Shown: positions 2,555 through 61,320 of the stretch, piece after piece | How positions within the stretch are numbered: the first letter of the stretch is position 1 | How the letters are laid out: each line of letters begins with the position of its first letter | Program-made: the position numbers and the translations under genes | Origin: a virus | DNA: 64,000 bases | Strand: one strand, 5' to 3' | IMG/VR virus record: IMGVR_UViG_3300050821_001858 | Span: 1 to 64,000 of that record | Notes under the pieces: generated by a model | What the model was told of the DNA's origin: nothing | What the model saw: only the letters and a program-made list of their open reading frames with translations | The model's database searches: none

Positions 2555-3187
2555 ATGACCCAAATTAACGAAGTCACCCCTCCGGGGATACCTGATAAAG
2601 ATGTGAAGGACATGAAGCCTTCATTCAAGAAGCAATATGGTGATCGCTGGAAGAGCGTGATGTACGCTACCCTATGGAAGCGTCATAACAAAAACGAAGA
2701 TACTCGTATTGAAATGATCAACTATATTTGGGAACACGTTCATCCATCACGTAAGGTCGAAGAAAACCAAGCTATTCTAGTTATGCATCCCGAGCAAGGT
2801 CGTCAAGCACGCCCCCTTGTGGAAATGTCGGATAATGAAATTGAACATCATTATATGAATATCAAAAAGATCAAAGAAGATGCTATTGACGACCAACTAG
2901 CACGCCATGGTCTATCTCGTCAATCTGTAAATAATCTTAATAAGTCTAAAGGTCTTGTTGATTTGAGTAAGTTTAAACGACCAAAACCACAGGCTGCTAA
3001 AGCTGTTGTTGATGAAGCTTGGGCTGGTGATAAGACAGGTGAAAATGCCACTAACCCTAAGAAAAAGGGAATGTGGGCTGGCTACAGTTTAGAGGATTTA
3101 CACAAGGCTCGAAAGACTGCATCTGGTACAAGATTGAAAGAAATTGATTTTGCAATTCGCGCGAAAACAGGATGGGGTAAGGTTTAA
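2555..3187 (+). CDS. Conserved head-region protein, unknown function
   Basis: 210 residues; AAGGA lies 7 nt before the ATG. The segment MKPSFKKQYGDRWKSVMYAT near residue 20 is a recurring motif in T4-like structural-region proteins. The C-terminal half is Lys-rich (KGLVDLSKFKRPKPQAAK; KARKTASGTRLKEIDFAIR). No transmembrane segment or known catalytic motif. It ends with a 1-nt overlap with the next gene and belongs to the head operon. Confidence 0.75.
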   Translation: MTQINEVTPPGIPDKDVKDMKPSFKKQYGDRWKSVMYATLWKRHNKNEDTRIEMINYIWEHVHPSRKVEENQAILVMHPEQGRQARPLVEMSDNEIEHHYMNIKKIKEDAIDDQLARHGLSRQSVNNLNKSKGLVDLSKFKRPKPQAAKAVVDEAWAGDKTGENATNPKKKGMWAGYSLEDLHKARKTASGTRLKEIDFAIRAKTGWGKV

Positions 3188-25186: not shown

Positions 25187-25262
25187 GCGCGGTGAGCAGC
25201 AAGGTGTTGCAGTCGAATTCTAAATCGGACGCAGGCAGGTTCAATTCCTGTATCGCGCGCCA
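25187..25262 (+). tRNA. Atypical tRNA with probable 8-nt anticodon loop
   Basis: 76 nt with CCA. Acceptor GCGCGGT/ATCGCGC, D arm GCAG/TTGC and T arm GCAGG/CCTGT (loop TTCAATT) pair well. The anticodon region pairs only as TCGA/TCGG (or GTCGA/TCGGAC with a bulge) around the loop ATTCTAAA. Conventional reading would be TCT (Arg); an 8-nt loop could expose UCUA. Lone tRNA far from the main cluster, one base after regA. Confidence 0.75.
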
Positions 25263-34813: not shown

Positions 34814-35899
34814 ATGGCTACTGGCGAAATGGCTGCGCTGCTAAAGAAGATACAAAGCGTTAATAAGCTTGTTGGAACTGAAATGTTAGAAGATAGTATT
34901 ATCTTCGAAAACGTTGATCCAATTGTAACACCTGTACCGTTGATCAACGTGGCTTTGTCGGGTAGGTTGGATGGGGGACTTTTTCCAGGCACACTCATGA
35001 TTGCTGCTGAATCTAAGCGGTTCAAGAGTGTGTTTGGTCTTATGCTTGCGTCGGCTTATCTTCAGCAAGTTCCAGGGAGTTATTTGGTATTTTATGATAC
35101 TGAGCGAGGCACCCCCAAGGATTATTGGCAATCTGTTGGTATTGATCCTAAGCGTGTTGTTTATAAACAGCCGGATAATATTGAAAGATTGAATGCTGAT
35201 ATGATGCATTTGATCAATAGTCTTGAACCTGAACATGATGGTAAACTCTTCATTTTGATTGATTCGCTTGGTAATCTTCCAAGTATGCATGAGACGGAAG
35301 TTGCTGCTGAGGGTAAAGGTAAAGTTGATATGGCACGTTCAAAGGTGCTTAAGTCACTTTTTCGAACAACTACGTTGCCAATTGTTCAAAAGCGTTGTTA
35401 TTGTGTAGTCATCAATCATGTCTATTCCCAAATGTCAATGTATGCTCCTGTGAAAGTATCCGGGGGTGGTGGTCCAACATATAATTCAAATGATATTTGG
35501 ATTATCGGCAAGCGTGTTGACAGCGAAGGTAAGGGTGAAGAGAAGGTTGTACACGGAAATGAATTCATTATTAATATAGAGAAGTCCCGTATTGTTCGGG
35601 AGCGTTCTCAGTTTCCAATCAATGTAAGTTATACTGAAGGTATTCAGCGTTGGTCGGGTTTGTTTGATATCGCAATGTATGGAGAATTTATTAATGCCGC
35701 GACGACAAAAGGTTGGTACACAACAGATAAAATTGCCTCCCGTGATGGCAAAAAATTTCATCGCGCTGATGTTGAATATGATGACGCTTTCTGGAAAGAA
35801 ATGGTTAACCGAGAAGATTTCAAAGCGTTCATGACAGATTTGTTTACTCTTGGAAATAAACCATTGATTTCATACGATAACGTGTTTAATGAGAACTGA
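34814..35899 (+). CDS. uvsX: Recombinase UvsX (RecA-like)
   Basis: 361 residues (T4: 391). Walker A variant AAESKRFKS (about 66; T4 has a similar SKxFKS loop) and Walker B LFILIDSLGNLP (about 140). C-terminal part resembles T4 UvsX. Strand exchange for recombination-dependent replication together with UvsY. Overlaps gp41 by 11 nt. Confidence 0.93.
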   Translation: MATGEMAALLKKIQSVNKLVGTEMLEDSIIFENVDPIVTPVPLINVALSGRLDGGLFPGTLMIAAESKRFKSVFGLMLASAYLQQVPGSYLVFYDTERGTPKDYWQSVGIDPKRVVYKQPDNIERLNADMMHLINSLEPEHDGKLFILIDSLGNLPSMHETEVAAEGKGKVDMARSKVLKSLFRTTTLPIVQKRCYCVVINHVYSQMSMYAPVKVSGGGGPTYNSNDIWIIGKRVDSEGKGEEKVVHGNEFIINIEKSRIVRERSQFPINVSYTEGIQRWSGLFDIAMYGEFINAATTKGWYTTDKIASRDGKKFHRADVEYDDAFWKEMVNREDFKAFMTDLFTLGNKPLISYDNVFNEN

Positions 35900-37298
35900 A
35901 ACATCGATATTATCAAACCTTATTACCAACGAAGAATACATCCGAAAAGTCTTTCCTTATCTCAAAAAAGAGTACTTCATGGACGGTGCTGAAGCTACCG
36001 TTTTCCATGTGATCAAAGAATACTTTGACAAGTACAATAAACGCCCCCTTATTCAGGTAATGCAATCTGAATTGGCGGAATATAACCTGAGTACTAAGGA
36101 ATTTGATCAGGTAAAATCTGTCGTTGAAAGTATTAAGTCTCTTGATAGCGTAAAACCAGATTTGGAGTGGCTTGTTGACACCACAGAACAGTGGTGTCAA
36201 ACGCAAGCTATTCATGGTGCCATCCTTCAGTCGATGGATATCATTTCGGATGACAAAAAACCCCGGAACGCAATTCCGGGGTTGTTGCAAGATGCTTTAG
36301 CGGTTTCATTTAATAGCGACGTTGGACTTGATTTTTATGATCATGCTGATTATTGGTATGATTTAACTCATAGTCGTTTACCGCGTATACCTTTTGATAT
36401 TGATTATCTGAATAAAATCACCAAAGGTGGTTTACTCCCCAAGACGTTGAACATCATTATTGGTGGTGTTGGTTTTGGTAAATCGCTTTGGATGTGTCAT
36501 ATGGCAGGCGCTAACCTGCTACAAGGTAAAAAAGTCTTGTATATTACCATGGAGTTGTCGAAAGAACAAACCATGGAACGTATCTATGCAAATATGTTGA
36601 ATATTTCATTGGATATGATGCCTGATATCCCTAAAGAAATCTTCTTGAAAAAAGTTGAGAAGATGAAGGAAAAGACGGCTGGTCGTCTAAAAGTGGCAGA
36701 GTATCCTACTGGTTCCGCTGGTGCTGCTAACTTTCGACATCTTTTGAATGAACTGAAAGTCAAGCAGAATTTCGTTCCTGATATTGTTTATATCGATTAT
36801 TTGAATATTTGTTGTTCAAGTCGAGTAAAACTTTCGGGGAATCTAGGGATGTATAATTATGTCAAGTCAATTGCTGAAGAAATTCGTGCTCTCGCAGTTG
36901 AACAAAATATCCCTATTATCTCGGCTTCGCAGGTTAACCGTGAAGGGTTTAGATCGTCTGATCCGGGTATGGATGATATTTCGGAATCCTTTGGACTAGC
37001 AGCAACAGCCGATCTGATTATTATCATCATTCTGTCCGAAGAGTTAATAGCTCTAAACCAATATATGGTCAAGCAAGGAAAGAACCGGTACGCTGACGTT
37101 AATCGGTTCAATAAGTTCGTAGTTGGGGTAGATAAACCAAAGATGCGTCTTTATAATGTGGAAGCGCATGCTCAATCGAGAACTATAGAGGAACCAACCG
37201 TTGTTCAATTAGAAGCCCCCGTTGATTATGAGAAGTCTCTTATCGATGCTTTAGGATCGCTGGTTGAACCGGAACCTGAATGGAGTCAATATGGATAA
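35889..37298 (+). CDS. gp41: Replicative helicase gp41 (DnaB-like)
   Basis: 469 residues (T4: 475). Walker A IIGGVGFGKSL (about 193), Walker B DIVYIDYLNI, and ISASQVNREGFRSS typical of DnaB. Forms the primosome with gp61, encoded 7.5 kb downstream. Confidence 0.95.
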   Translation: MRTETSILSNLITNEEYIRKVFPYLKKEYFMDGAEATVFHVIKEYFDKYNKRPLIQVMQSELAEYNLSTKEFDQVKSVVESIKSLDSVKPDLEWLVDTTEQWCQTQAIHGAILQSMDIISDDKKPRNAIPGLLQDALAVSFNSDVGLDFYDHADYWYDLTHSRLPRIPFDIDYLNKITKGGLLPKTLNIIIGGVGFGKSLWMCHMAGANLLQGKKVLYITMELSKEQTMERIYANMLNISLDMMPDIPKEIFLKKVEKMKEKTAGRLKVAEYPTGSAGAANFRHLLNELKVKQNFVPDIVYIDYLNICCSSRVKLSGNLGMYNYVKSIAEEIRALAVEQNIPIISASQVNREGFRSSDPGMDDISESFGLAATADLIIIIILSEELIALNQYMVKQGKNRYADVNRFNKFVVGVDKPKMRLYNVEAHAQSRTIEEPTVVQLEAPVDYEKSLIDALGSLVEPEPEWSQYG

Positions 37299-37470
37299 AT
37301 CATCAACAACGTTAGAAGCGCTTTTTTGGGATATGGAACGCGCAATGGTAAAATGTATGAGTTATCATACTTTTTGGAATTATAAAGCTTTGATACCTGA
37401 GGTTAGTAATGGGAGTAATATTACTTCTTTACAATGGGACATGTTGTATAATGTTTACTTTAATGAATGA
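37291..37470 (+). CDS. Small protein, unknown
   Basis: 59 residues from ATG 37291 (MDKSSTTLEALFWDMERAM), overlapping the gp41 stop by 8 nt and the convergent methyltransferase by 16 nt. Unknown function. Confidence 0.6.
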   Translation: MDKSSTTLEALFWDMERAMVKCMSYHTFWNYKALIPEVSNGSNITSLQWDMLYNVYFNE

Positions 37471-38015
37471 AGACGGAAAGCAACTTGTTCATGTCCTGAT
37501 TTTGATATACAAGTGTATGTGTATAGTCCTAAATTAAGGAATTCTTGAAAAGCTTTATATTCCCCTTCCTCAAAACCAGTATATCCACAAAATTCATCGA
37601 ATAGAATAATAGTACCATCTCGTAATTGATCTTTAATTGTATTAAGAACATATGAAGTTGAAGAATATAGATCAGCATCCATATGTAAAAAGGCAACTGA
37701 ATCAGTTTGTTCTTTGAGGAAGGTTTCAAGAGTATCTTGAAATAGACCTATCACAAGATGAACGTTGGAGGGTAAGTCTTTCGGAGGATCACATTTAAAA
37801 TGCCCTTTGTCATAGCCGTTACGCCAATTTTCGGGTAATCCTTCGAATGAATCAAAACCATAAACAGTACGATTGGGTAAATGGTTGGCTATTCTTCGGA
37901 TTGAGCCTCCTGTTCCTACTCCAAATTCCATGATCATTCCATCCTCGGAGGATTGAGATAGAATTTCTTCAAGGGTTTTGCCTTCAGTTCCTTCAATTTT
38001 ATCTATGAGTGACAT
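37455..38015 (-). CDS. TylF-type class I methyltransferase
   Basis: 186 residues from ATG 38015 (upstream residues in the open frame are not protein-like). SAM motif MEFGVGTGGSIRRIA, then YGFDSFEGLPENW, AFLHMDADLYSST and ILFDEFCGYTGFEEGEYKAF match macrocin-O-methyltransferase-like proteins. Target unknown; may modify sugars, base or protein. Only gene leftward in this part, driven by its own late box. Confidence 0.8.
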   Translation of the reverse strand: MSLIDKIEGTEGKTLEEILSQSSEDGMIMEFGVGTGGSIRRIANHLPNRTVYGFDSFEGLPENWRNGYDKGHFKCDPPKDLPSNVHLVIGLFQDTLETFLKEQTDSVAFLHMDADLYSSTSYVLNTIKDQLRDGTIILFDEFCGYTGFEEGEYKAFQEFLNLGLYTYTCISKSGHEQVAFRLHSLK

Positions 38016-38018
38016 AGG

Positions 38019-38037
38019 ATTATTTAGTCTAAATAAT
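38019..38037. promoter_or_regulatory. Palindromic divergent late promoter pair
   Basis: ATTATTTAGTCTAAATAAT is a perfect palindrome around the central T. On the plus strand it holds TCTAAATA-N4-ATG (38040); on the minus strand ACTAAATA-N5-ATG (38015). Confidence 0.6.
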
Positions 38038-38039
38038 GA

Positions 38040-40112
38040 ATGTTCCTGATAGATGAAGAAGTCATTTTTGAAGCTGAAGAGCCTAAAGAACAAGAAAAGC
38101 CCCAAAAGCTGACTAAACAGGGTTATTTTGACCATGTAGAGGACTTGATTTTTCGTCATGGAGAAAAAGGTTATAAGGACGCTCTAAAAGTATTGGATAA
38201 AACATATGGGTTTGTTAAGGGAAGAAATAAAGGAATTAACGTCTCTACTAAATTTGACGGTAGTCCGGGAATACTTTGGGGACATGCAAACGGTAAATTC
38301 TTCGTATCCACGAAATCTTTTTTTAATCAATCCCCAAAACTCAATTTTACTACAAACGATATCCAATCCAATCATGGAAAGTCTAAGGGACTTACAACGC
38401 GCCTTCAACAAGCACTGAAATATCTCCCGGAAGTTACTCCTAAGAAGGGTATATTCCGAGGGGATTTGATGTTCACTAAGGATGATATAGAGCACGCCAA
38501 TGGAAATATCAAATTCACTCCAAACACTCTATCATACAATGTACCCGATGCCTCCGAAGAAGGTCAAAAGATTCTTAAGGCTAAGATCGGCATTGTCCCT
38601 CATATGGAATATGAGGAACAGCCTAATGGGTCATTAAAGGCTCGTTTCGATCTTTCCCCTTCTCGGTTTAAGAAGTCTGATAATGTGCATATGATCGATC
38701 CTCAATTGAAGGGTCCTCAGGAAATGCATCCTGAACGAGAAAAAGACTATATTGATAATATTAATCAGGCACAGAAATTAAAATCCGAGTTGGACAGTAA
38801 TCACTCCTTTATGGCGATTGAAGGTCATCAGGATTTATTACTCGGCTATATCAATAATTGCGTCAAGGAAGGCAAGCCCAAGTCAGTTGGGGGCTATATC
38901 TCGTTCTTGACCAAGAAAGCCGGGGAACATATTGGTAGTGTCAAGCAGGACAAAACTAAGAGTAAAGTTCAAAAGGAACTTGATGATGAAATCTTCAAGG
39001 TAAATCAGAATAAAAAGGGTCTTGATACCCTATTCAAGGTACATGGGCATCTTGCGAAGGCAAAGAAAGCCCTTACTGATACCTTAGGCAAGAATTCCCC
39101 CTATAAAGAAACAGTGTTGGATAAACCGGCAAAGCCTGAGGGTTTTGTTGCATCTGTCGATGGTCAACCGGTGAAGCTGGTAGACCGGTCGAAATTCTCT
39201 GCGCAAAATTTCGAATGGAACAATAAGGTTAATCCCGAAGATAATCCTCTTGTTTTGACATTTGGACGTATGAATCCAGCAACAAAGGGTCATGGTAAGC
39301 TTCTCGATAAAGCTGATGACGTTGCTCGTCGTATTGGAGCAAAGGCGAAGACAGTCCTAACCAATACTCAGGATAAGAAGAACAATCCTCTTACTCCCGC
39401 TGAAAAGCTTAAATGGGCAAAGACCCTATTCCCCGGAAAAGATATCGCCTTGGCGTCACCTGATAAAGGGACGATCATTGCTCAGTTGCAACATGCTCAT
39501 CATTCAGGTGTGCAGGATATGACGATTGTTACTGGTTCTGATAAGGCTAAGATGTATCAGGATTTGATCAACAAGTATAATGGTCCAAGTAAAAACCATC
39601 TATTCAACTTCAAGAGAGCCCGGATCGTGGTTGCTAACCGTAATAAGGGTGGTAAACCCGGTAGTGAGGACCCGGAGGATGCATCAGCTACAAGAGCACG
39701 TGATGCAGCTATGAAGGATGATTTCAACGAATTCAAGAAAGTGATGCCTAAGGGAGTGTCGGATGACGCTACCAAGGAAGTATATCATACGGTAAGAGCA
39801 AATGCCGGTGTTGTCAAAATTGACGACAAAACAGATGCTCATGCTTTGGTTATTCTCTCAAAGCGACACGATGATATCGGTAAACAGGCTAAGAAAGAGG
39901 TAGAACGACGTAAAACTCATGGTATCTGGACAGGTCATATTCATGAAGATGGTAATAAAGTAAATGATCCTAATAAGAGATTGTTTGCTACCAAGTCAGC
40001 GTTTGATGCATATGCATCAGATACCCCTGATCAATCAACGAAAATACCTAATTATCAAGCGAACCTTGAAACAATTAGAAAAGTAATGAAAAAGAAAGCC
40101 CTTAAATCCTAA
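38040..40112 (+). CDS. Ligase-like nucleotidyltransferase fused to NMNAT/cytidylyltransferase-like domain
   Basis: 690 residues. Residues about 50-250 contain the ligase/capping-type motif STKFDGSPGILWG (K-x-DG) with GKFFVSTKSFF and GIFRGDLMFT. Residues about 400-540 are a Rossmann nucleotidylyltransferase: TFGRMNPATKGHGK (T/HxGH), TGSDKAKMY, SATRARDAAMKDD. The C-terminal 80 residues are basic. Substrates are unknown: NAD-related or RNA-end chemistry are both conceivable. Late-type promoter and virion-gene neighbours suggest late expression or packaging. Confidence 0.75.
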   Translation: MFLIDEEVIFEAEEPKEQEKPQKLTKQGYFDHVEDLIFRHGEKGYKDALKVLDKTYGFVKGRNKGINVSTKFDGSPGILWGHANGKFFVSTKSFFNQSPKLNFTTNDIQSNHGKSKGLTTRLQQALKYLPEVTPKKGIFRGDLMFTKDDIEHANGNIKFTPNTLSYNVPDASEEGQKILKAKIGIVPHMEYEEQPNGSLKARFDLSPSRFKKSDNVHMIDPQLKGPQEMHPEREKDYIDNINQAQKLKSELDSNHSFMAIEGHQDLLLGYINNCVKEGKPKSVGGYISFLTKKAGEHIGSVKQDKTKSKVQKELDDEIFKVNQNKKGLDTLFKVHGHLAKAKKALTDTLGKNSPYKETVLDKPAKPEGFVASVDGQPVKLVDRSKFSAQNFEWNNKVNPEDNPLVLTFGRMNPATKGHGKLLDKADDVARRIGAKAKTVLTNTQDKKNNPLTPAEKLKWAKTLFPGKDIALASPDKGTIIAQLQHAHHSGVQDMTIVTGSDKAKMYQDLINKYNGPSKNHLFNFKRARIVVANRNKGGKPGSEDPEDASATRARDAAMKDDFNEFKKVMPKGVSDDATKEVYHTVRANAGVVKIDDKTDAHALVILSKRHDDIGKQAKKEVERRKTHGIWTGHIHEDGNKVNDPNKRLFATKSAFDAYASDTPDQSTKIPNYQANLETIRKVMKKKALKS

Positions 40113-40115
40113 ATA
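40108..40115 (+). promoter_or_regulatory. Putative late promoter box CCTAAATA
   Basis: Overlaps the stop codon of the fusion gene, 27 nt before the next ATG, with AAGGGG between. Confidence 0.6.
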
Positions 40116-40142
40116 CTTTATCTAATTTAAGGGGTGTTTCGA

Positions 40143-41612
40143 ATGAAAAGTTTTAAGAATTTAATCAAAGGATTGAAAGAAGATGAAAACACGACCAGCC
40201 CGCAACCCTATCCGTTTGCCCCTGAAGCCGCTAAGCCAGAAGCCCAAACGAGTAGTCGTAAAAAGGTTCAAGCCAACACGTCCCCATGGTCAAACCAAGA
40301 CGATCCAAACACTATAAAAATCGGCGAGGTAACACCCGTTGATACTGACCCTCAATTGGACACCAAGAATCCAAAGCCGTCAAATGTACCGGTGGGTCAG
40401 AACACTACTGTTGAATCAACAGTTAATGAGGCTGAATATAATCTTTCAACACAAAAGTCTACTCTTGAAAAGGATATGGCATTTGCGAAGTATCATCGTG
40501 ATATAGCTGAAAGGGTCATGGAAATCGTAAAGCGTCGTCAAAAGCACGCTGATCTTCATGGTATTCGTCCATTCGGTAATATGGCTCCGATGCAAACAGA
40601 ATCATCTTCAGGGACTATTGTTCGACACCCTGTAGAAGTCGTCGGACATATTATTGATGCTGCAATGAAGGGTTTAGGTACTGATGCTAGATTGAATATT
40701 CATGTTCCACGTACTGGTGAATTATCTCATGCTCAATCTCGACTAGGTGCTGAAACTAATAAGAATGCTAAGAAGGCTAAGCCAGAAGAAAAGCCTGTTG
40801 CAAAGGAACCAGAAAGGGAGAAGACCGTGAATGATAAGCTGATGGCTGCTGTTGGTAAGATGGGAGAGAATGTCAACGAAGGCTTCATGAAGCGTCGTTA
40901 TAATATCTCGGATATTCATTCGGAAGTAGACAAATTCCATCCTTCTGTCCCCCATGAGAATGTTTTGCAACATATCGATAATAAGACCGCTCATTGGGCT
41001 GATCCTGTACAAAAGTCACAGGCTGCGTCTGATGCAAGCATGTACCATGAGCGTCGTCAGAAAGATTTCCGTAAGTCTCAGTCGTCCCAGAAGCTTACTT
41101 TAGCTTCTCAGGCAACAGATGGTGGTTCGGGTATATCTGAGAACCTGGGAGCTACTAATGATAGTTCGGGTGGTGCTGATGGTGTTGGTACCATTGATAA
41201 GGCAAATGTCAAGAAGAACAAAATTCGTCAAGGTATCGGTAAAGATAGCAAGAGTTCCTTCAATAACAAGAATTGGAATTCCCCCGGTGTTGTTGAAAAC
41301 TTCGGACCTGTTAAGTGGTCAGATTTGAAGGCTTTGAATGAGATAATGGGCTTAATTGACAATCGTAAGCCCGAAGATTTCCCAAAGACTAAAGAAGATT
41401 ACCTTAAGCATGCTATTAAGGCAGACAAGAGTGCCCAAGATGCTGATAAACGAGGTAAGGGATGGCATGCGATGATGTTCCGTCGAATTAGGGATCGTCA
41501 TCTAGTTCATTATATCAATCGAGCAGAACCCGATGAACTTCACAAGCTTCATAAAGCTATGACAACTGAAGAATTTGAAGCTATGATGAAGGATAAATAT
41601 CCAACAAAATAA
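40143..41612 (+). CDS. Putative internal virion / core protein
   Basis: 489 residues from ATG 40143. Low-complexity, Lys/Asn/Pro-rich with several (L/I/V)xE-like sites and the recurring NEAE/NEGF type motifs of T4-like core proteins. C-terminal 100 residues look folded (WSDLKALNEIMGLIDNRKP; MTTEEFEAMMKDKY). No catalytic motif. Likely structural, from context. Confidence 0.6.
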   Translation: MKSFKNLIKGLKEDENTTSPQPYPFAPEAAKPEAQTSSRKKVQANTSPWSNQDDPNTIKIGEVTPVDTDPQLDTKNPKPSNVPVGQNTTVESTVNEAEYNLSTQKSTLEKDMAFAKYHRDIAERVMEIVKRRQKHADLHGIRPFGNMAPMQTESSSGTIVRHPVEVVGHIIDAAMKGLGTDARLNIHVPRTGELSHAQSRLGAETNKNAKKAKPEEKPVAKEPEREKTVNDKLMAAVGKMGENVNEGFMKRRYNISDIHSEVDKFHPSVPHENVLQHIDNKTAHWADPVQKSQAASDASMYHERRQKDFRKSQSSQKLTLASQATDGGSGISENLGATNDSSGGADGVGTIDKANVKKNKIRQGIGKDSKSSFNNKNWNSPGVVENFGPVKWSDLKALNEIMGLIDNRKPEDFPKTKEDYLKHAIKADKSAQDADKRGKGWHAMMFRRIRDRHLVHYINRAEPDELHKLHKAMTTEEFEAMMKDKYPTK

Positions 41613-41629
41613 TAATAAGGAGAAATATA

Positions 41630-57976: not shown

Positions 57977-58064
57977 TTTTATGATTGGAAAAAATATTGG
58001 AAAGTATTATTTATGGAACAAATATGACTTTCAAACGTTATCTCCTATAGAAGGGAGGTAACTT

Positions 58065-58286
58065 ATGATAGCAATGGCAATTTCTATCTTATGGTTGCTG
58101 ATTGGTTTGATTGTTATATTAGGTGTAGTATGGCTTGCACTTTATGTTGTTAAGCTATTTACTCCTGTGCCAGATGCAGTTGAAAAAGCTGTTTGGGCAA
58201 TTGTTTTGATATTATGTTTGATTTCAGCCCTAGGCTTACTAGGGGGTGGATCAGTAGGAATACCACATCCACCTTGGATGCATTAA
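58065..58286 (+). CDS. Membrane protein with two helices
   Basis: 73 residues, GGGAGG ribosome site. AISILWLLIGLIVILGVVWLALYVV and AVWAIVLILCLISALGLL with a polar link containing PVPDAVEKAV. Resembles small conserved bacterial membrane proteins. A 26-codon frame (57981-58061) lies upstream but lacks a ribosome site. Confidence 0.65.
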   Translation: MIAMAISILWLLIGLIVILGVVWLALYVVKLFTPVPDAVEKAVWAIVLILCLISALGLLGGGSVGIPHPPWMH

Positions 58287-58288
58287 CT

Positions 58289-58314
58289 AGGGGGCTTCTT
58301 TGCCCCCTTCCTTT
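58289..58314 (+). terminator. Rho-independent terminator
   Basis: AGGGGGC/GCCCCCT stem with TTCTTT loop, followed by TCCTTTT. Confidence 0.85.
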
Positions 58315-58329
58315 TATTTAAATAAAACG

Positions 58330-58560
58330 AAGAAATGGGTTCGATTCCCATACTTTTATAGGTCGCGGAAAGCCCGTTCGAAAGGGTAGACACAGACACC
58401 GAAAGTAGAGAGTAATTAACTCGAAATCACTATTAAAGTGAGCCATATGGATACGGCATTCGTTGCTATAAGAGCGGAAACGGAGATTGTTCGAATCCTC
58501 CCTGCGCCGACAGGCGTTGTAGTTTAATGGGCAAAACACCGCTCGCCTATAGCAGAATTT
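58330..58560 (+). ncRNA. tRNA-like structured region with halves in swapped order
   Basis: No gene. A free T arm (ATGGG-TTCGATT-CCCAT, 58334-58350) is followed by CTTTTATAG (58353-58361), which pairs with CTATAAGAG (58466-58474). Then a tRNA 3'-half-like part (AGCGG...TTCGAAT...CTGCGCC, 58473-58508), a GACA link, and a 5'-half-like part (GGCGTTG-TA-GTTT/AAAC D arm-A-CCGCT, 58513-58543). CCGCT pairs with AGCGG and GGCGTTG with CTGCGCC, so the order is that of a circularly permuted tRNA. The T stem has a 3-nt insertion. Confidence 0.5.
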
Positions 58561-58563
58561 TAT

Positions 58564-58639
58564 GGGTCATTCGCCAAGTGGAAAGGCACGGGTTTTACAC
58601 GCCCTGATTGCGAAGGTTCGATTCCTTCATGACCTACCA
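58564..58639 (+). tRNA. tRNA-Val(TAC)
   Basis: Acceptor GGGTCAT/ATGACCT, anticodon loop TTTACAC closed by GGGT/GCCC, T arm GAAGG/CCTTC, CCA. Confidence 0.88.
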
Positions 58640-58689
58640 GATGTCTCGGGAGTGAGAGGGCGACAGTCGAAAATTTTTTGAAAAAATTC

Positions 58690-58718
58690 TTGACTGTCCC
58701 TTCGACTTGCTGTAGAGT
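58690..58718 (+). promoter_or_regulatory. Host-type promoter TTGACT-N17-TAGAGT with AT-rich palindrome upstream
   Basis: Preceded by AATTTTTTGAAAAAATT, an UP-element-like palindrome. Predicted start about 58725; the only candidate driver of the long RNA. Confidence 0.7.
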
Positions 58719-58724
58719 ACTGAA

Positions 58725-59967
58725 ACTGAGAACAGAGTTGAGAGAAATCGAAACACAACATAGGAGGCAATCATGTGACCGCAAGGTCATAAACAGCCAA
58801 CAACTTTAATTGTTTTTGTGTGTAAAAGTGTGTAGAGAGTTTAAAGGTTAGGGAGAAATCACGGTTCGAGTCCGTGCGTTGTGGGGAAACCTGCTTTGTC
58901 GTCTAATGGTTAGGACGCTCCCGTTTCTATTCGTCTTTGGACGGATTAGGGCAAGCCCCCCTGAATGTGTGGGTATTAATATCAGAAAGTGTGTTATCAC
59001 AAGGTAGTGTACACTACCTACCTACCGGGAGATAGGTACGCAAGCCTATCTCCCATTTAAAATTATCAGATGTATTACAGATTGGGGGCATAGCCTCGTC
59101 AGGATAAGCCAGGGTGACTTGGTAAAAGCGGTAAGTCTTCCTACAGACCCGCACTATTAGCAATAATAGCCCATCTATGCAGGTCCGGTCTTCCCCGTGA
59201 GGGGCAATCGATGGCATCGGTTGTAAAGCAGGACGGTTAGGTAAGGTCGAAAGATAGGTTCGAGGGTAACACTGTAGAGCCAAGTCCCGAAAGGACACCT
59301 TACGTTCAAACTAACTTACTGTGTATAGATAACGGATAGTGGGATACAGAGCATGAGACTTGCAATCTAATGCGACCCGCAAAATGGAGGATAATGGCTG
59401 ACGTTAACACAGTCGGACAGCATCCAAGAATTTGGTTTAGTAGCTCGCAAGGCGAAGGACAGTTGCCGTGTTGTATTTGGTACCTCAAAAGGGTATTGAG
59501 CAACAGTCGCAGCACGTCAAGTAGGTTTCCGATAATTGAAACTAGGTGTTTCAATCTCACTGTGAATGAGATGTCGGTTGGTTCAAATCCAACTTATCAT
59601 GCAGAAAAAGCAAAGTCTGCGACTGTGTTGAATGAAAGTGGTTTAATCCTATGAGTCCTTTGGACTAACATAGGGGATTTGTTACTCGCAAGGTGACAGT
59701 CTTTGATAGCGTGATTTGTCATAGAGGGTTAGCCCCCTCGAATAGCTCGCAAGGCTAGTGGTGAAAAGCATGTCGAATAGTTCAACATGAAAGAGGTACC
59801 GCCCCCTCTATAATCAAGGCAACCATGTGACGATACTGGATAGTTGTCCAGTGGAAATCGGGGAACCTTTCTTAAATGTGCGCTCCGTCGCCGCATCCCT
59901 CGCAGGATGGAGGATAATCCCGTAAGTTGTCATGTAGAACCCGTATTCTCAGGGTTTTATCTTTTTA
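58725..59967 (+). ncRNA. Candidate giant structured non-coding RNA (about 1.24 kb)
   Basis: No credible coding sequence on either strand. Direct structural evidence: hairpin TGACC-GCAA-GGTCA (58776-58789); tRNA-like module with CACAAC/GTTGTG (58754-58759 with 58878-58883) and a perfect T arm at 58860-58876; palindrome AGGTAGTGTACACTACCT (59002-59019); 10-bp stem GGGAGATAGG/CCTATCTCCC (59027-59054); CCCC-GTGA-GGGG (59193-59204); GTCC/GGAC with GAAA (59284-59296); a second T arm GTTGG-TTCAAAT-CCAAC (59577-59593); three CTCGCAAGG loops (59444, 59685, 59746); long-range ATAGAGGG/CCCTCTAT (59721 with 59804). Starts at a promoter, ends at a terminator, lies among tRNAs. The setting resembles GOLLD and ROOL RNAs of phages, but I cannot match their consensus. 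Confidence 0.6.
59937..59967 (+). terminator. Terminator at the end of the long RNA
   Basis: GAACCC/GGGTTT stem, 9-nt loop, then TTATCTTTTT. Confidence 0.65.
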
Positions 59968-60083
59968 TCGCGTGGGTGTCCAATGTTCCGATGTGCAGGA
60001 CACATCTGGCTTGACCATTGCGCGGAGTAATCCCAGGTCAAGGAATAACTGATTACCAGTCGGAACAACCTTCCACGCGATAA
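59965..60083 (+). ncRNA. Compact pseudoknotted RNA, riboswitch or ribozyme candidate
   Basis: P1: TTATCGCGTGG/CCACGCGATAA (11 bp, 59965-59975 with 60073-60083). P2: TGTTCCGA/TCGGAACA (8 bp). Inside: hairpin ATGTG/CACAT, hairpin CTTGACC/GGTCAAG (60010-60042, 19-nt loop) and hairpin ACTG/CAGT (60048-60060). Loop bases GTAATC (60027-60032) can pair with GATTAC (60051-60056), a pseudoknot that competes with the last hairpin. It ends directly before the ribosome site of the gene at 60096. No known class recognised. Confidence 0.6.
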
Positions 60084-60095
60084 GAGGATAATGAA

Positions 60096-60272
60096 ATGTA
60101 TTTTCAAACAACATCAAAAGCTATTAAGCAATGGTTACTTGATAGTAGAATATCTCTTATCTATGAAAGATATGATAACCCATTTAATGATTTTTTTCTC
60201 CGGTTATATCAAACACAGATTAATAATAATGTACATTTTGTAATTCGACAACATTTATTTACGCGCGATTAA
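60096..60272 (+). CDS. Small protein, unknown
   Basis: 58 residues from ATG 60096 (AGAGGA upstream): MYFQTTSKAIKQWLLDSRIS, FNDFFLRLYQTQINNNVHFV. The competing frame from ATG 60091 looks less protein-like. The last codons lie in tRNA-Val. Confidence 0.55.
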   Translation: MYFQTTSKAIKQWLLDSRISLIYERYDNPFNDFFLRLYQTQINNNVHFVIRQHLFTRD

Positions 60273-60337
60273 CTCATTGGTAGAGTGCAACTTTGACATA
60301 GTTGAAGTAAAAGGTCCGATTCCTTTATCGCGCACCA
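60263..60337 (+). tRNA. tRNA-Val(GAC)
   Basis: Acceptor GCGCGAT/ATCGCGC perfect, D stem ACTC/GAGT, anticodon arm CAACT-TTGACAT-AGTTG, T arm AAAGG/CCTTT, CCA. Overlaps the upstream gene by 10 nt. Confidence 0.93.
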
Positions 60338-60341
60338 TTAT

Positions 60342-60420
60342 GGTCGGGTAGCTTAAAATATAAAGTAGCTGAAGCCTTGAAACTTCGGCAATGTAGGTGA
60401 AATCCCTACCCTGATCGCCA
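60342..60420 (+). tRNA. Atypical tRNA, 8-nt anticodon loop, Ser(TGA)-like
   Basis: Acceptor GGTCGGG/CCTGATC, D arm GCTT/AAGT, T arm GTAGG/CCTAC, CCA. The anticodon stem is GCTGAAG/CTTCGGC, 7 bp when extended, around the 8-nt loop CCTTGAAA. Conventional reading TGA (Ser) would need a long variable arm, which is absent. Confidence 0.7.
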
Positions 60421-61080: not shown

Positions 61081-61320
61081 ATGCTAAGCGGATATGGGTT
61101 GACAACGGCTCACATTTTGTATAGAATACCGGACTACCAGAACATCCTTCAAACGTTTGTCTGGCAAGAATTTGACTTTCATCCTGAGTATCCTCATTTG
61201 AGGAAGTTTCTTGTCTTCTGGCATAAGAAGATTGAAGGACCGATCTTTAAGGTCGAAGTTGCTCATGCTGGTTATGAAAACAAGATTGAACTTGCAAAGG
61301 ATATCTGGAAATTACAATGA
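61081..61320 (+). CDS. usg: Usg-family protein
   Basis: 79 residues. GYGLTTAHILYRIPDYQNILQTFVWQ, FDFHPEYPHLRKFLVFW and IEGPIFKVEVAHA follow the Usg family, known mainly from alphaproteobacterial chromosomes. Its cellular role is unclear. GC content and codon use are nearer to the core genes than to the AT-rich tRNA-region ORFs, which suggests host origin. No good ribosome site. Confidence 0.82.
   Translation: MLSGYGLTTAHILYRIPDYQNILQTFVWQEFDFHPEYPHLRKFLVFWHKKIEGPIFKVEVAHAGYENKIELAKDIWKLQ

What the first reader, a model, noticed from the sequence alone, without database searches (positions are those of the whole stretch)
58690..59967. Giant structured non-coding RNA between tRNAs
A 1.24-kb tract has its own promoter (TTGACT-N17-TAGAGT plus an AT palindrome) and a terminator, no plausible ORF, and many perfect stems, several capped by GNRA loops (GCAA, GTGA, GAAA). 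A CTCGCAAGG loop recurs three times. It contains at least two tRNA-like T arms. Known giant phage RNAs next to tRNAs are GOLLD and ROOL; this may be a member or a new class.
Basis: partly seen in the sequence, partly recalled or inferred. Interest (0 to 1): 0.88.

Follow-up and report, generated by a model that had tools for sequence, protein, structure and literature searches.

The report
A phage GOLLD giant RNA
The tract is a real giant structured RNA of the known GOLLD family, carried in the tRNA cluster of an uncultivated T4-like phage and holding a histidine tRNA-like fold in its linker; an extra tRNA-mimicking hairpin sits upstream of it, but the thing itself belongs to an already described kind.

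Summary
Between tRNA-Val (58564-58639) and tRNA-Val (60263-60337) lies a non-coding structured tract. Rfam's GOLLD model matches 59461-59955 at 174.5 bits (cut-off 150, E=2.5e-47). Eight phage GOLLDs aligned here covary strongly on Rfam's structure: 57 of 97 pairs have double-sided changes. A relative phage carries a 63%-identical copy of 59082-59959, so the GOLLD RNA is about 59080-59959 (about 880 nt), not the whole 58690-59967. The linker holds a tRNA-His-like fold, conserved by compensatory changes in the relative and matching the published tRNA-in-linker arrangement. The 5' 390 nt are not shared with the relative and contain a different thing: a circularly permuted tRNA cloverleaf (58851-58922), with a stronger sister copy at 58463-58555. 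Comparison across IMG/VR identifies such elements as phage Y-RNA-like tRNA mimics (Rfam YrlA sub-threshold, often a Ro60/TROVE gene in the same phage), though the window copies themselves do not reach YrlA. Verdict: new member of a known kind, moderate interest. Working mechanism: an RNA nanocage with a tethered tRNA-like linker, inferred from published cryo-EM.

The parts
59461..59955 (+). GOLLD 3' domain (full Rfam model)
   Evidence: RF02032, 174.5 bits, gathering 150, E=2.5e-47, model 1-416 of 416; covariation over 8 phages; MFE z -4.0
59080..59460 (+). GOLLD 5' domain (start approximate)
   Evidence: aligned with the relative L165 at 63% over 59082-59959; 56% in the 5' domain alone, shared CCATC-AAACAAGC-type block with XacN1; folding energy alone not remarkable, z -0.6
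59529..59602 (+). tRNA-His-like fold (anticodon GTG) in the GOLLD linker; no encoded CCA, two terminal acceptor pairs missing
   Evidence: ARAGORN, RF00005 31.5 bits; the relative has tRNA-His (ATG) with CCA at the same place, 44.8 bits
59444..59452 (+). first of three CTCGCAAGG loops (others at 59685-59693 and 59746-59754)
   Evidence: the last two fall on CGCAAGG-type hairpin loops of the GOLLD alignment
59937..59971 (+). conserved 3' terminal hairpin of GOLLD followed by a T-rich stretch (terminator-like)
58690..58718 (+). promoter-like TTGACT-N17-TAGAGT (9 of 12)
   Evidence: not above chance by itself; the relative has TTGACA-N17-TATAGT about 55-85 nt before its GOLLD homology (sequence)
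58851..58922 (+). circularly permuted tRNA-like cloverleaf, acceptor helix capped by GAAA, in the leader of the tract
   Evidence: flanking-arm pairing z -2.2 (10/300 shuffles)
58463..58555 (+). second permuted tRNA-like cloverleaf (T arm with 3-nt bulge, acceptor helix capped by GACA, D arm) closed by an 8-bp basal stem
   Evidence: MFE fold is the permuted cloverleaf; basal pairing z -4.05, 0/300 shuffles; top hit of model R1 in the window (a model that does not separate tandem tRNAs)

Best explanation
The tract encodes a GOLLD RNA of about 880 nt (about 59080-59959) with a divergent 5' domain, the conserved 3' domain, and a linker that carries a tRNA-His-like fold (shown by sequence comparison). 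It most likely works as other GOLLD RNAs are thought to: it would be transcribed during infection and assemble by kissing loops and A-minor contacts (the repeated CGCAAG loops are candidates) into an RNA-only nanocage with its linker, here a tRNA-like fold, inside. The cage would then hold or protect that tethered tRNA-like element or other cargo late in infection. Family membership, fold and linker tRNA are shown here; cage assembly and cargo function are inferred from the published GOLLD structure (PMC12286853). The confidence given is for the identity; for the cargo mechanism alone it is about 0.4.
For: RF02032 full-length match, 174.5 bits. Same-family matches at 180-295 bits in 7 other phages. 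72.6% of cells paired, 57/97 pairs with double-sided changes, covariation score 0.416 against 0.188 +- 0.014 shuffled and at most 0.211 slid. Homolog at 63% identity over 880 nt in a relative with a 71%-identical ribonucleotide reductase. tRNAs in the linker in 4 of 8 phages: His, His, Pro, Gln. About seven double compensatory changes in the tRNA-like fold between window and relative (hand count). Published GOLLD 14-mer cage with linker inside.
Against: No expression data. The 5' domain has no Rfam model, and its folding energy is ordinary (z -0.6). The window's tRNA-His-like fold is weak (31.5 bits, no CCA, acceptor end unpaired) and may be a relic, as in a mycobacterial GOLLD (PMC6582537). 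Cage formation cannot be tested by sequence.
Confidence: 0.88

Rival explanations
1. A composite transcript: from the 58690 promoter one 1.25-kb RNA would carry a Y-RNA-like tRNA-mimic module at its 5' end fused to GOLLD, so that a cage would display or recruit tRNA-binding proteins.
For: Promoter-like site upstream of both; permuted cloverleaf at 58851-58922 with arms pairing z -2.2; no strong terminator found between it and GOLLD on the + strand.
Against: Promoter match is at chance level; the relative G076 starts its GOLLD about 60 nt after its own consensus promoter and lacks the module; only one phage shows the arrangement.
Confidence: 0.2
2. The GOLLD gene is a host for a functional tRNA: the linker tRNA is cut out by RNase P and CCA addition, and the rest is a by-product.
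For: Half of the phages looked at carry a tRNA there, one with encoded ACCA and 44.8-bit score, another at 55.2 bits (L150).
Against: GOLLD domains covary strongly even in phages without a linker tRNA; the window's copy lacks CCA and two acceptor pairs; no expression of the internal pseudo tRNA was detected in a mycobacterium (PMC6582537).
Confidence: 0.12
3. A new class of giant RNA, unrelated to GOLLD.
For: The 5' 390 nt have no Rfam match and are not in the relative.
Against: Full-length GOLLD match above cut-off, shared helices with covariation.
Confidence: 0.02

Closest known systems
GOLLD RNA (Rfam RF02032; 14-mer nanocage, PMC12286853)
   Same: Full-length 3' domain match above the cut-off, covarying helices, divergent 5' domain, phage tRNA island, tRNA in the linker, about 880 nt.
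   Different: Lowest-scoring of the eight phage GOLLDs looked at here (174.5 bits against 180-295); T4-like phage; tRNA-His-like linker; long unrelated leader with a tRNA mimic.
ROOL RNA
   Same: Giant phage RNA near tRNAs (per PMC12286853).
   Different: No ROOL match in the window at gathering, nor in 57980-60400 at E up to 5.
Bacterial Y RNA, YrlA (Rfam RF02553)
   Same: Upstream elements have the YrlA plan: T arm, closed acceptor-like helix, D arm, basal stem joining the RNA's ends (description in PMC8394870).
   Different: Window copies do not match RF02553 in 58300-59075; no TROVE/Ro60 gene in the 113-kb record.
Circularly permuted tRNA genes of algae and archaea (PMC3978253)
   Same: 3' half before 5' half.
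   Different: Here the acceptor is closed by a short loop, no splicing-type processing is implied, and the related phage elements resemble YrlA.

Membership tests
GOLLD | Rfam covariance model at or above gathering score | tested here: met
   174.5 vs 150 bits, model 1-416
GOLLD | Consensus helices supported by covariation | tested here: met
   57/97 pairs with double-sided changes, 0/500 shuffles reach the score
GOLLD | Conserved 3' region, less conserved 5' region, total over 800 nt | tested here: met
GOLLD | Phage or prophage location near tRNAs, sometimes a tRNA in the linker | tested here: met
   20 ARAGORN tRNA calls in the window, 19 of them in 54.3-62.3 kb; tRNA-His-like at 59529-59602; T4-like genes
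GOLLD | Assembly into a closed 14-mer cage | not testable with these tools
   needs mass photometry or cryo-EM
GOLLD | Expression rising at lysis | not testable with these tools
   no transcriptome of this uncultivated phage
ROOL | Rfam covariance model match | tested here: not met
YrlA / bacterial Y RNA (elements 58463-58555 and 58851-58922) | Rfam RF02553 match | tested here: not met
   no match up to E=2 in 58300-59075; related phage elements reach about 25-50 bits, below the cut-off of 69
YrlA / bacterial Y RNA (elements 58463-58555 and 58851-58922) | tRNA-like T, acceptor and D arms in permuted order on a basal stem | tested here: met
   basal stem strong for 58463-58555, modest for 58851-58922
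YrlA / bacterial Y RNA (elements 58463-58555 and 58851-58922) | Ro60/Rsr (TROVE) partner gene | tested here: not met
   none in the 113-kb record, which may be incomplete

The most novel reading that the evidence does not exclude
A phage RNA that joins a Y-RNA-like tRNA mimic (58851-58922) to a GOLLD cage RNA in one transcript, with a second tRNA-like fold in the cage linker: one molecule carrying two tRNA mimics, one outside and one inside the cage.
Probability: 0.15. Interest if true: 0.65.

Novelty: new member of a known kind. Interest (0 to 1): 0.4.

Why it matters
GOLLD is one of the few natural RNAs known to build an empty cage, and its cargo is unknown. Two related T4-like phages keep a His-type tRNA fold at the same linker position, with compensatory changes, although their sequences have diverged. 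That is evidence that the linker content can be under selection and gives a concrete cargo hypothesis to test. The side finding, that phage tRNA arrays hold Y-RNA-like tRNA mimics that tRNA finders miss and that these often travel with a Ro60 gene, would help annotation of phage tRNA clusters.

Tried and rejected
Exact-pattern search for other GOLLDs with 14 bases: chance hits; of the 50 records checked only the same phage was confirmed.

A GOLLD alignment with three sequences on the wrong strand (A1) was discarded and redone (A2).

Permuted pre-tRNA processed by ligation: T4-type RNA ligase and RtcB are not consistently present, and acceptor helices are closed by tight loops, so rejected as a general account.

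Candidate 58327-58463 (74-nt linker): the cloverleaf pairs exist but the arms do not pair beyond chance (z -0.14); not claimed.

A covariance model of the permuted core (R1) cannot tell permuted elements from ordinary tandem tRNAs (an ordinary Pro-Asp pair, L289, scores 48.6), so its scores are not used as evidence.

BLAST of four phage tRNA-mimic elements found nothing in named phages.

The idea that the permuted elements are a wholly new class was dropped after the YrlA and TROVE results.

Full report
What is there. The window lies in a 113-kb virus record with T4-like replication genes. The DNA polymerase, at most about 44% identical to any phage in the collection, is closest to cyanomyoviruses. 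A Usg-like gene and tRNA similarities to Caulobacter, Brevundimonas, Ochrobactrum and Sinorhizobium phages suggest an alphaproteobacterial host (inference). Nineteen ARAGORN tRNA calls lie between 54.3 and 62.3 kb.

GOLLD identity. Rfam RF02032 matches 59461-59955 over its whole length with 174.5 bits against a gathering score of 150; no ROOL match appears. To ask for more than a model score, seven other phage GOLLDs were fetched: five from IMG/VR by a GOLLD pattern, one from Xanthomonas phage XacN1, and one from a relative found through its ribonucleotide reductase (71% identical). On their alignment Rfam's structure pairs 72.6% of cells, 57 of 97 pairs show changes on both sides, and the covariation score is 0.416. 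Shuffles give 0.188 +- 0.014, and versions slid by 1-3 columns at most 0.211. The structure comes from Rfam, not from this alignment, but it was placed by way of the window row, which was fitted to it, so the percentage paired leans towards it. The 3' domain also folds better than shuffles (z -4.0); the 5' domain does not (z -0.6).

Extent. The relative aligns to 59082-59959 at 63%. It has its own TTGACA-N17-TATAGT about 55-85 nt before the homologous part. The GOLLD RNA in the window is therefore about 880 nt, and 58690-59080 is a leader or a neighbouring unit. The window's own promoter-like site at 58690 is not above chance.

The linker tRNA. The GOLLD model is interrupted by an insertion where ARAGORN finds tRNA-His (GTG), 59529-59602. 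The relative has tRNA-His (ATG) with ACCA there, L151 has tRNA-Pro and L150 tRNA-Gln. Between window and relative about seven base pairs of the fold change on both sides (hand count). [quoted passage not shown] In one mycobacterium the internal tRNA was judged a pseudogene without detected expression, so a working tRNA should not be assumed.

Mechanism. Shown: family, fold, linker tRNA-like element, tRNA-island context. Inferred: transcription during infection, assembly into a cage, the linker held inside. GOLLD's cellular role is unknown in the literature read here; cargo holding is the authors' hypothesis and the one I find most likely, at perhaps 0.4 on its own.

The other T arm. The T arm at 58860-58876 is not part of a tRNA gene. 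It is followed by a helix capped with GAAA, then a D arm, and its two outer arms GGGAG/CTCCC pair: a tRNA cloverleaf in circularly permuted order, which is also the predicted fold. A better copy lies at 58463-58555 with an 8-bp basal stem (z -4.05).

Is this real beyond the window? In the fetched viral loci, sampled without regard to acceptor pairing, T-arm to D-arm neighbours outside recognised tRNAs had 7/7 complementary acceptors in 10 of 22 cases, against 4 of 383 for neighbours in ordinary tandem tRNAs (Fisher 2e-11; the window's 58851-58922 element is among the 22 but not among the 10). A second pattern search gave more with GAAA caps, along with ordinary tandem tRNAs. Flanks of the elements pair beyond shuffles (mean z -1.7 over 20 elements, tandem-tRNA controls 0.0).

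What they are. Rfam's nearest family is YrlA, the bacterial Y RNA that mimics tRNA. Many of these phage elements score about 25-50 bits, below the 69-bit cut-off; ordinary tRNA pairs also give weak hits. Nine of 17 such phage records carry a TROVE (Ro60/Rsr) gene, several within about 1 kb of the element (1 of 14 control genomes). Y RNAs have been reported in mycobacteriophages and suggested in a Listeria phage (PMC12282133). So these are best read as phage Y-RNA-like tRNA mimics, a known kind. For the two window elements the assignment rests on topology only: they miss the YrlA model and the record has no TROVE gene.

Verdict. New member of a known kind. The most novel reading not excluded, a fusion of a tRNA mimic with GOLLD in one transcript, stands at about 0.15.

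Noticed in passing
window 58463-58555: Circularly permuted tRNA-like cloverleaf with GACA-capped acceptor helix and 8-bp basal stem, Y-RNA-like in plan, missed by ARAGORN and by Rfam.
   Followed up: yes
L290:5179-5364 (-), L288:3770-3955 (-), L295:492-677 (-), L230:8691-8876, L294:12964-13149, L299:5619-5804, L214:2124-2309 (-), L266:2010-2195, L226:9185-9370 (-), L228 near 2489, L282 near 2609-2879 (-), L167 near 9662 and 11219, L198, L247, L234, L298: Phage Y-RNA-like permuted tRNA mimics: closed acceptor helices (often GAAA-capped), many with a basal stem and some with a full anticodon-like arm (for example CTC in L290, GTG in L288, TCT in L266); 9 of 17 such records also carry a TROVE/Ro60 gene.
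   Followed up: partly
window 59957-60091: A 135-nt branched hairpin (19-nt arms, internal junction, possible GTAATC/GATTAC pseudoknot) directly after GOLLD, folding z -6.5, no Rfam match, absent from the relative; lies just before a small ORF with a ribosome-binding-like AGAGGA. Function unexplained.
   Followed up: partly
L153 (XacN1 record 35548-41613) 1654-2074 and 2147-2242: XacN1 has a permuted tmRNA (RF04321, 123 bits, tag ANANTFDYALAA) upstream of its GOLLD, and another T-arm/D-arm element with a 7-bp outer stem between them; the GOLLD occurs in two copies in the record.
   Followed up: partly
window 58327-58463: T arm and D arm in permuted order with a 74-nt linker; arms pair 5/5 and acceptor 6/7 but the flanks do not support a basal stem; may be a tRNA relic.
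   Followed up: yes
window 25187-25262: ARAGORN calls a tRNA with anticodon CTA (named Pyl) far from the tRNA cluster; could be an amber suppressor or a false call.
   Followed up: no
window 61081-61320: Usg-like family protein (PF06233, E=3e-30) within the phage tRNA cluster, a hint of an alphaproteobacterial host.
   Followed up: no
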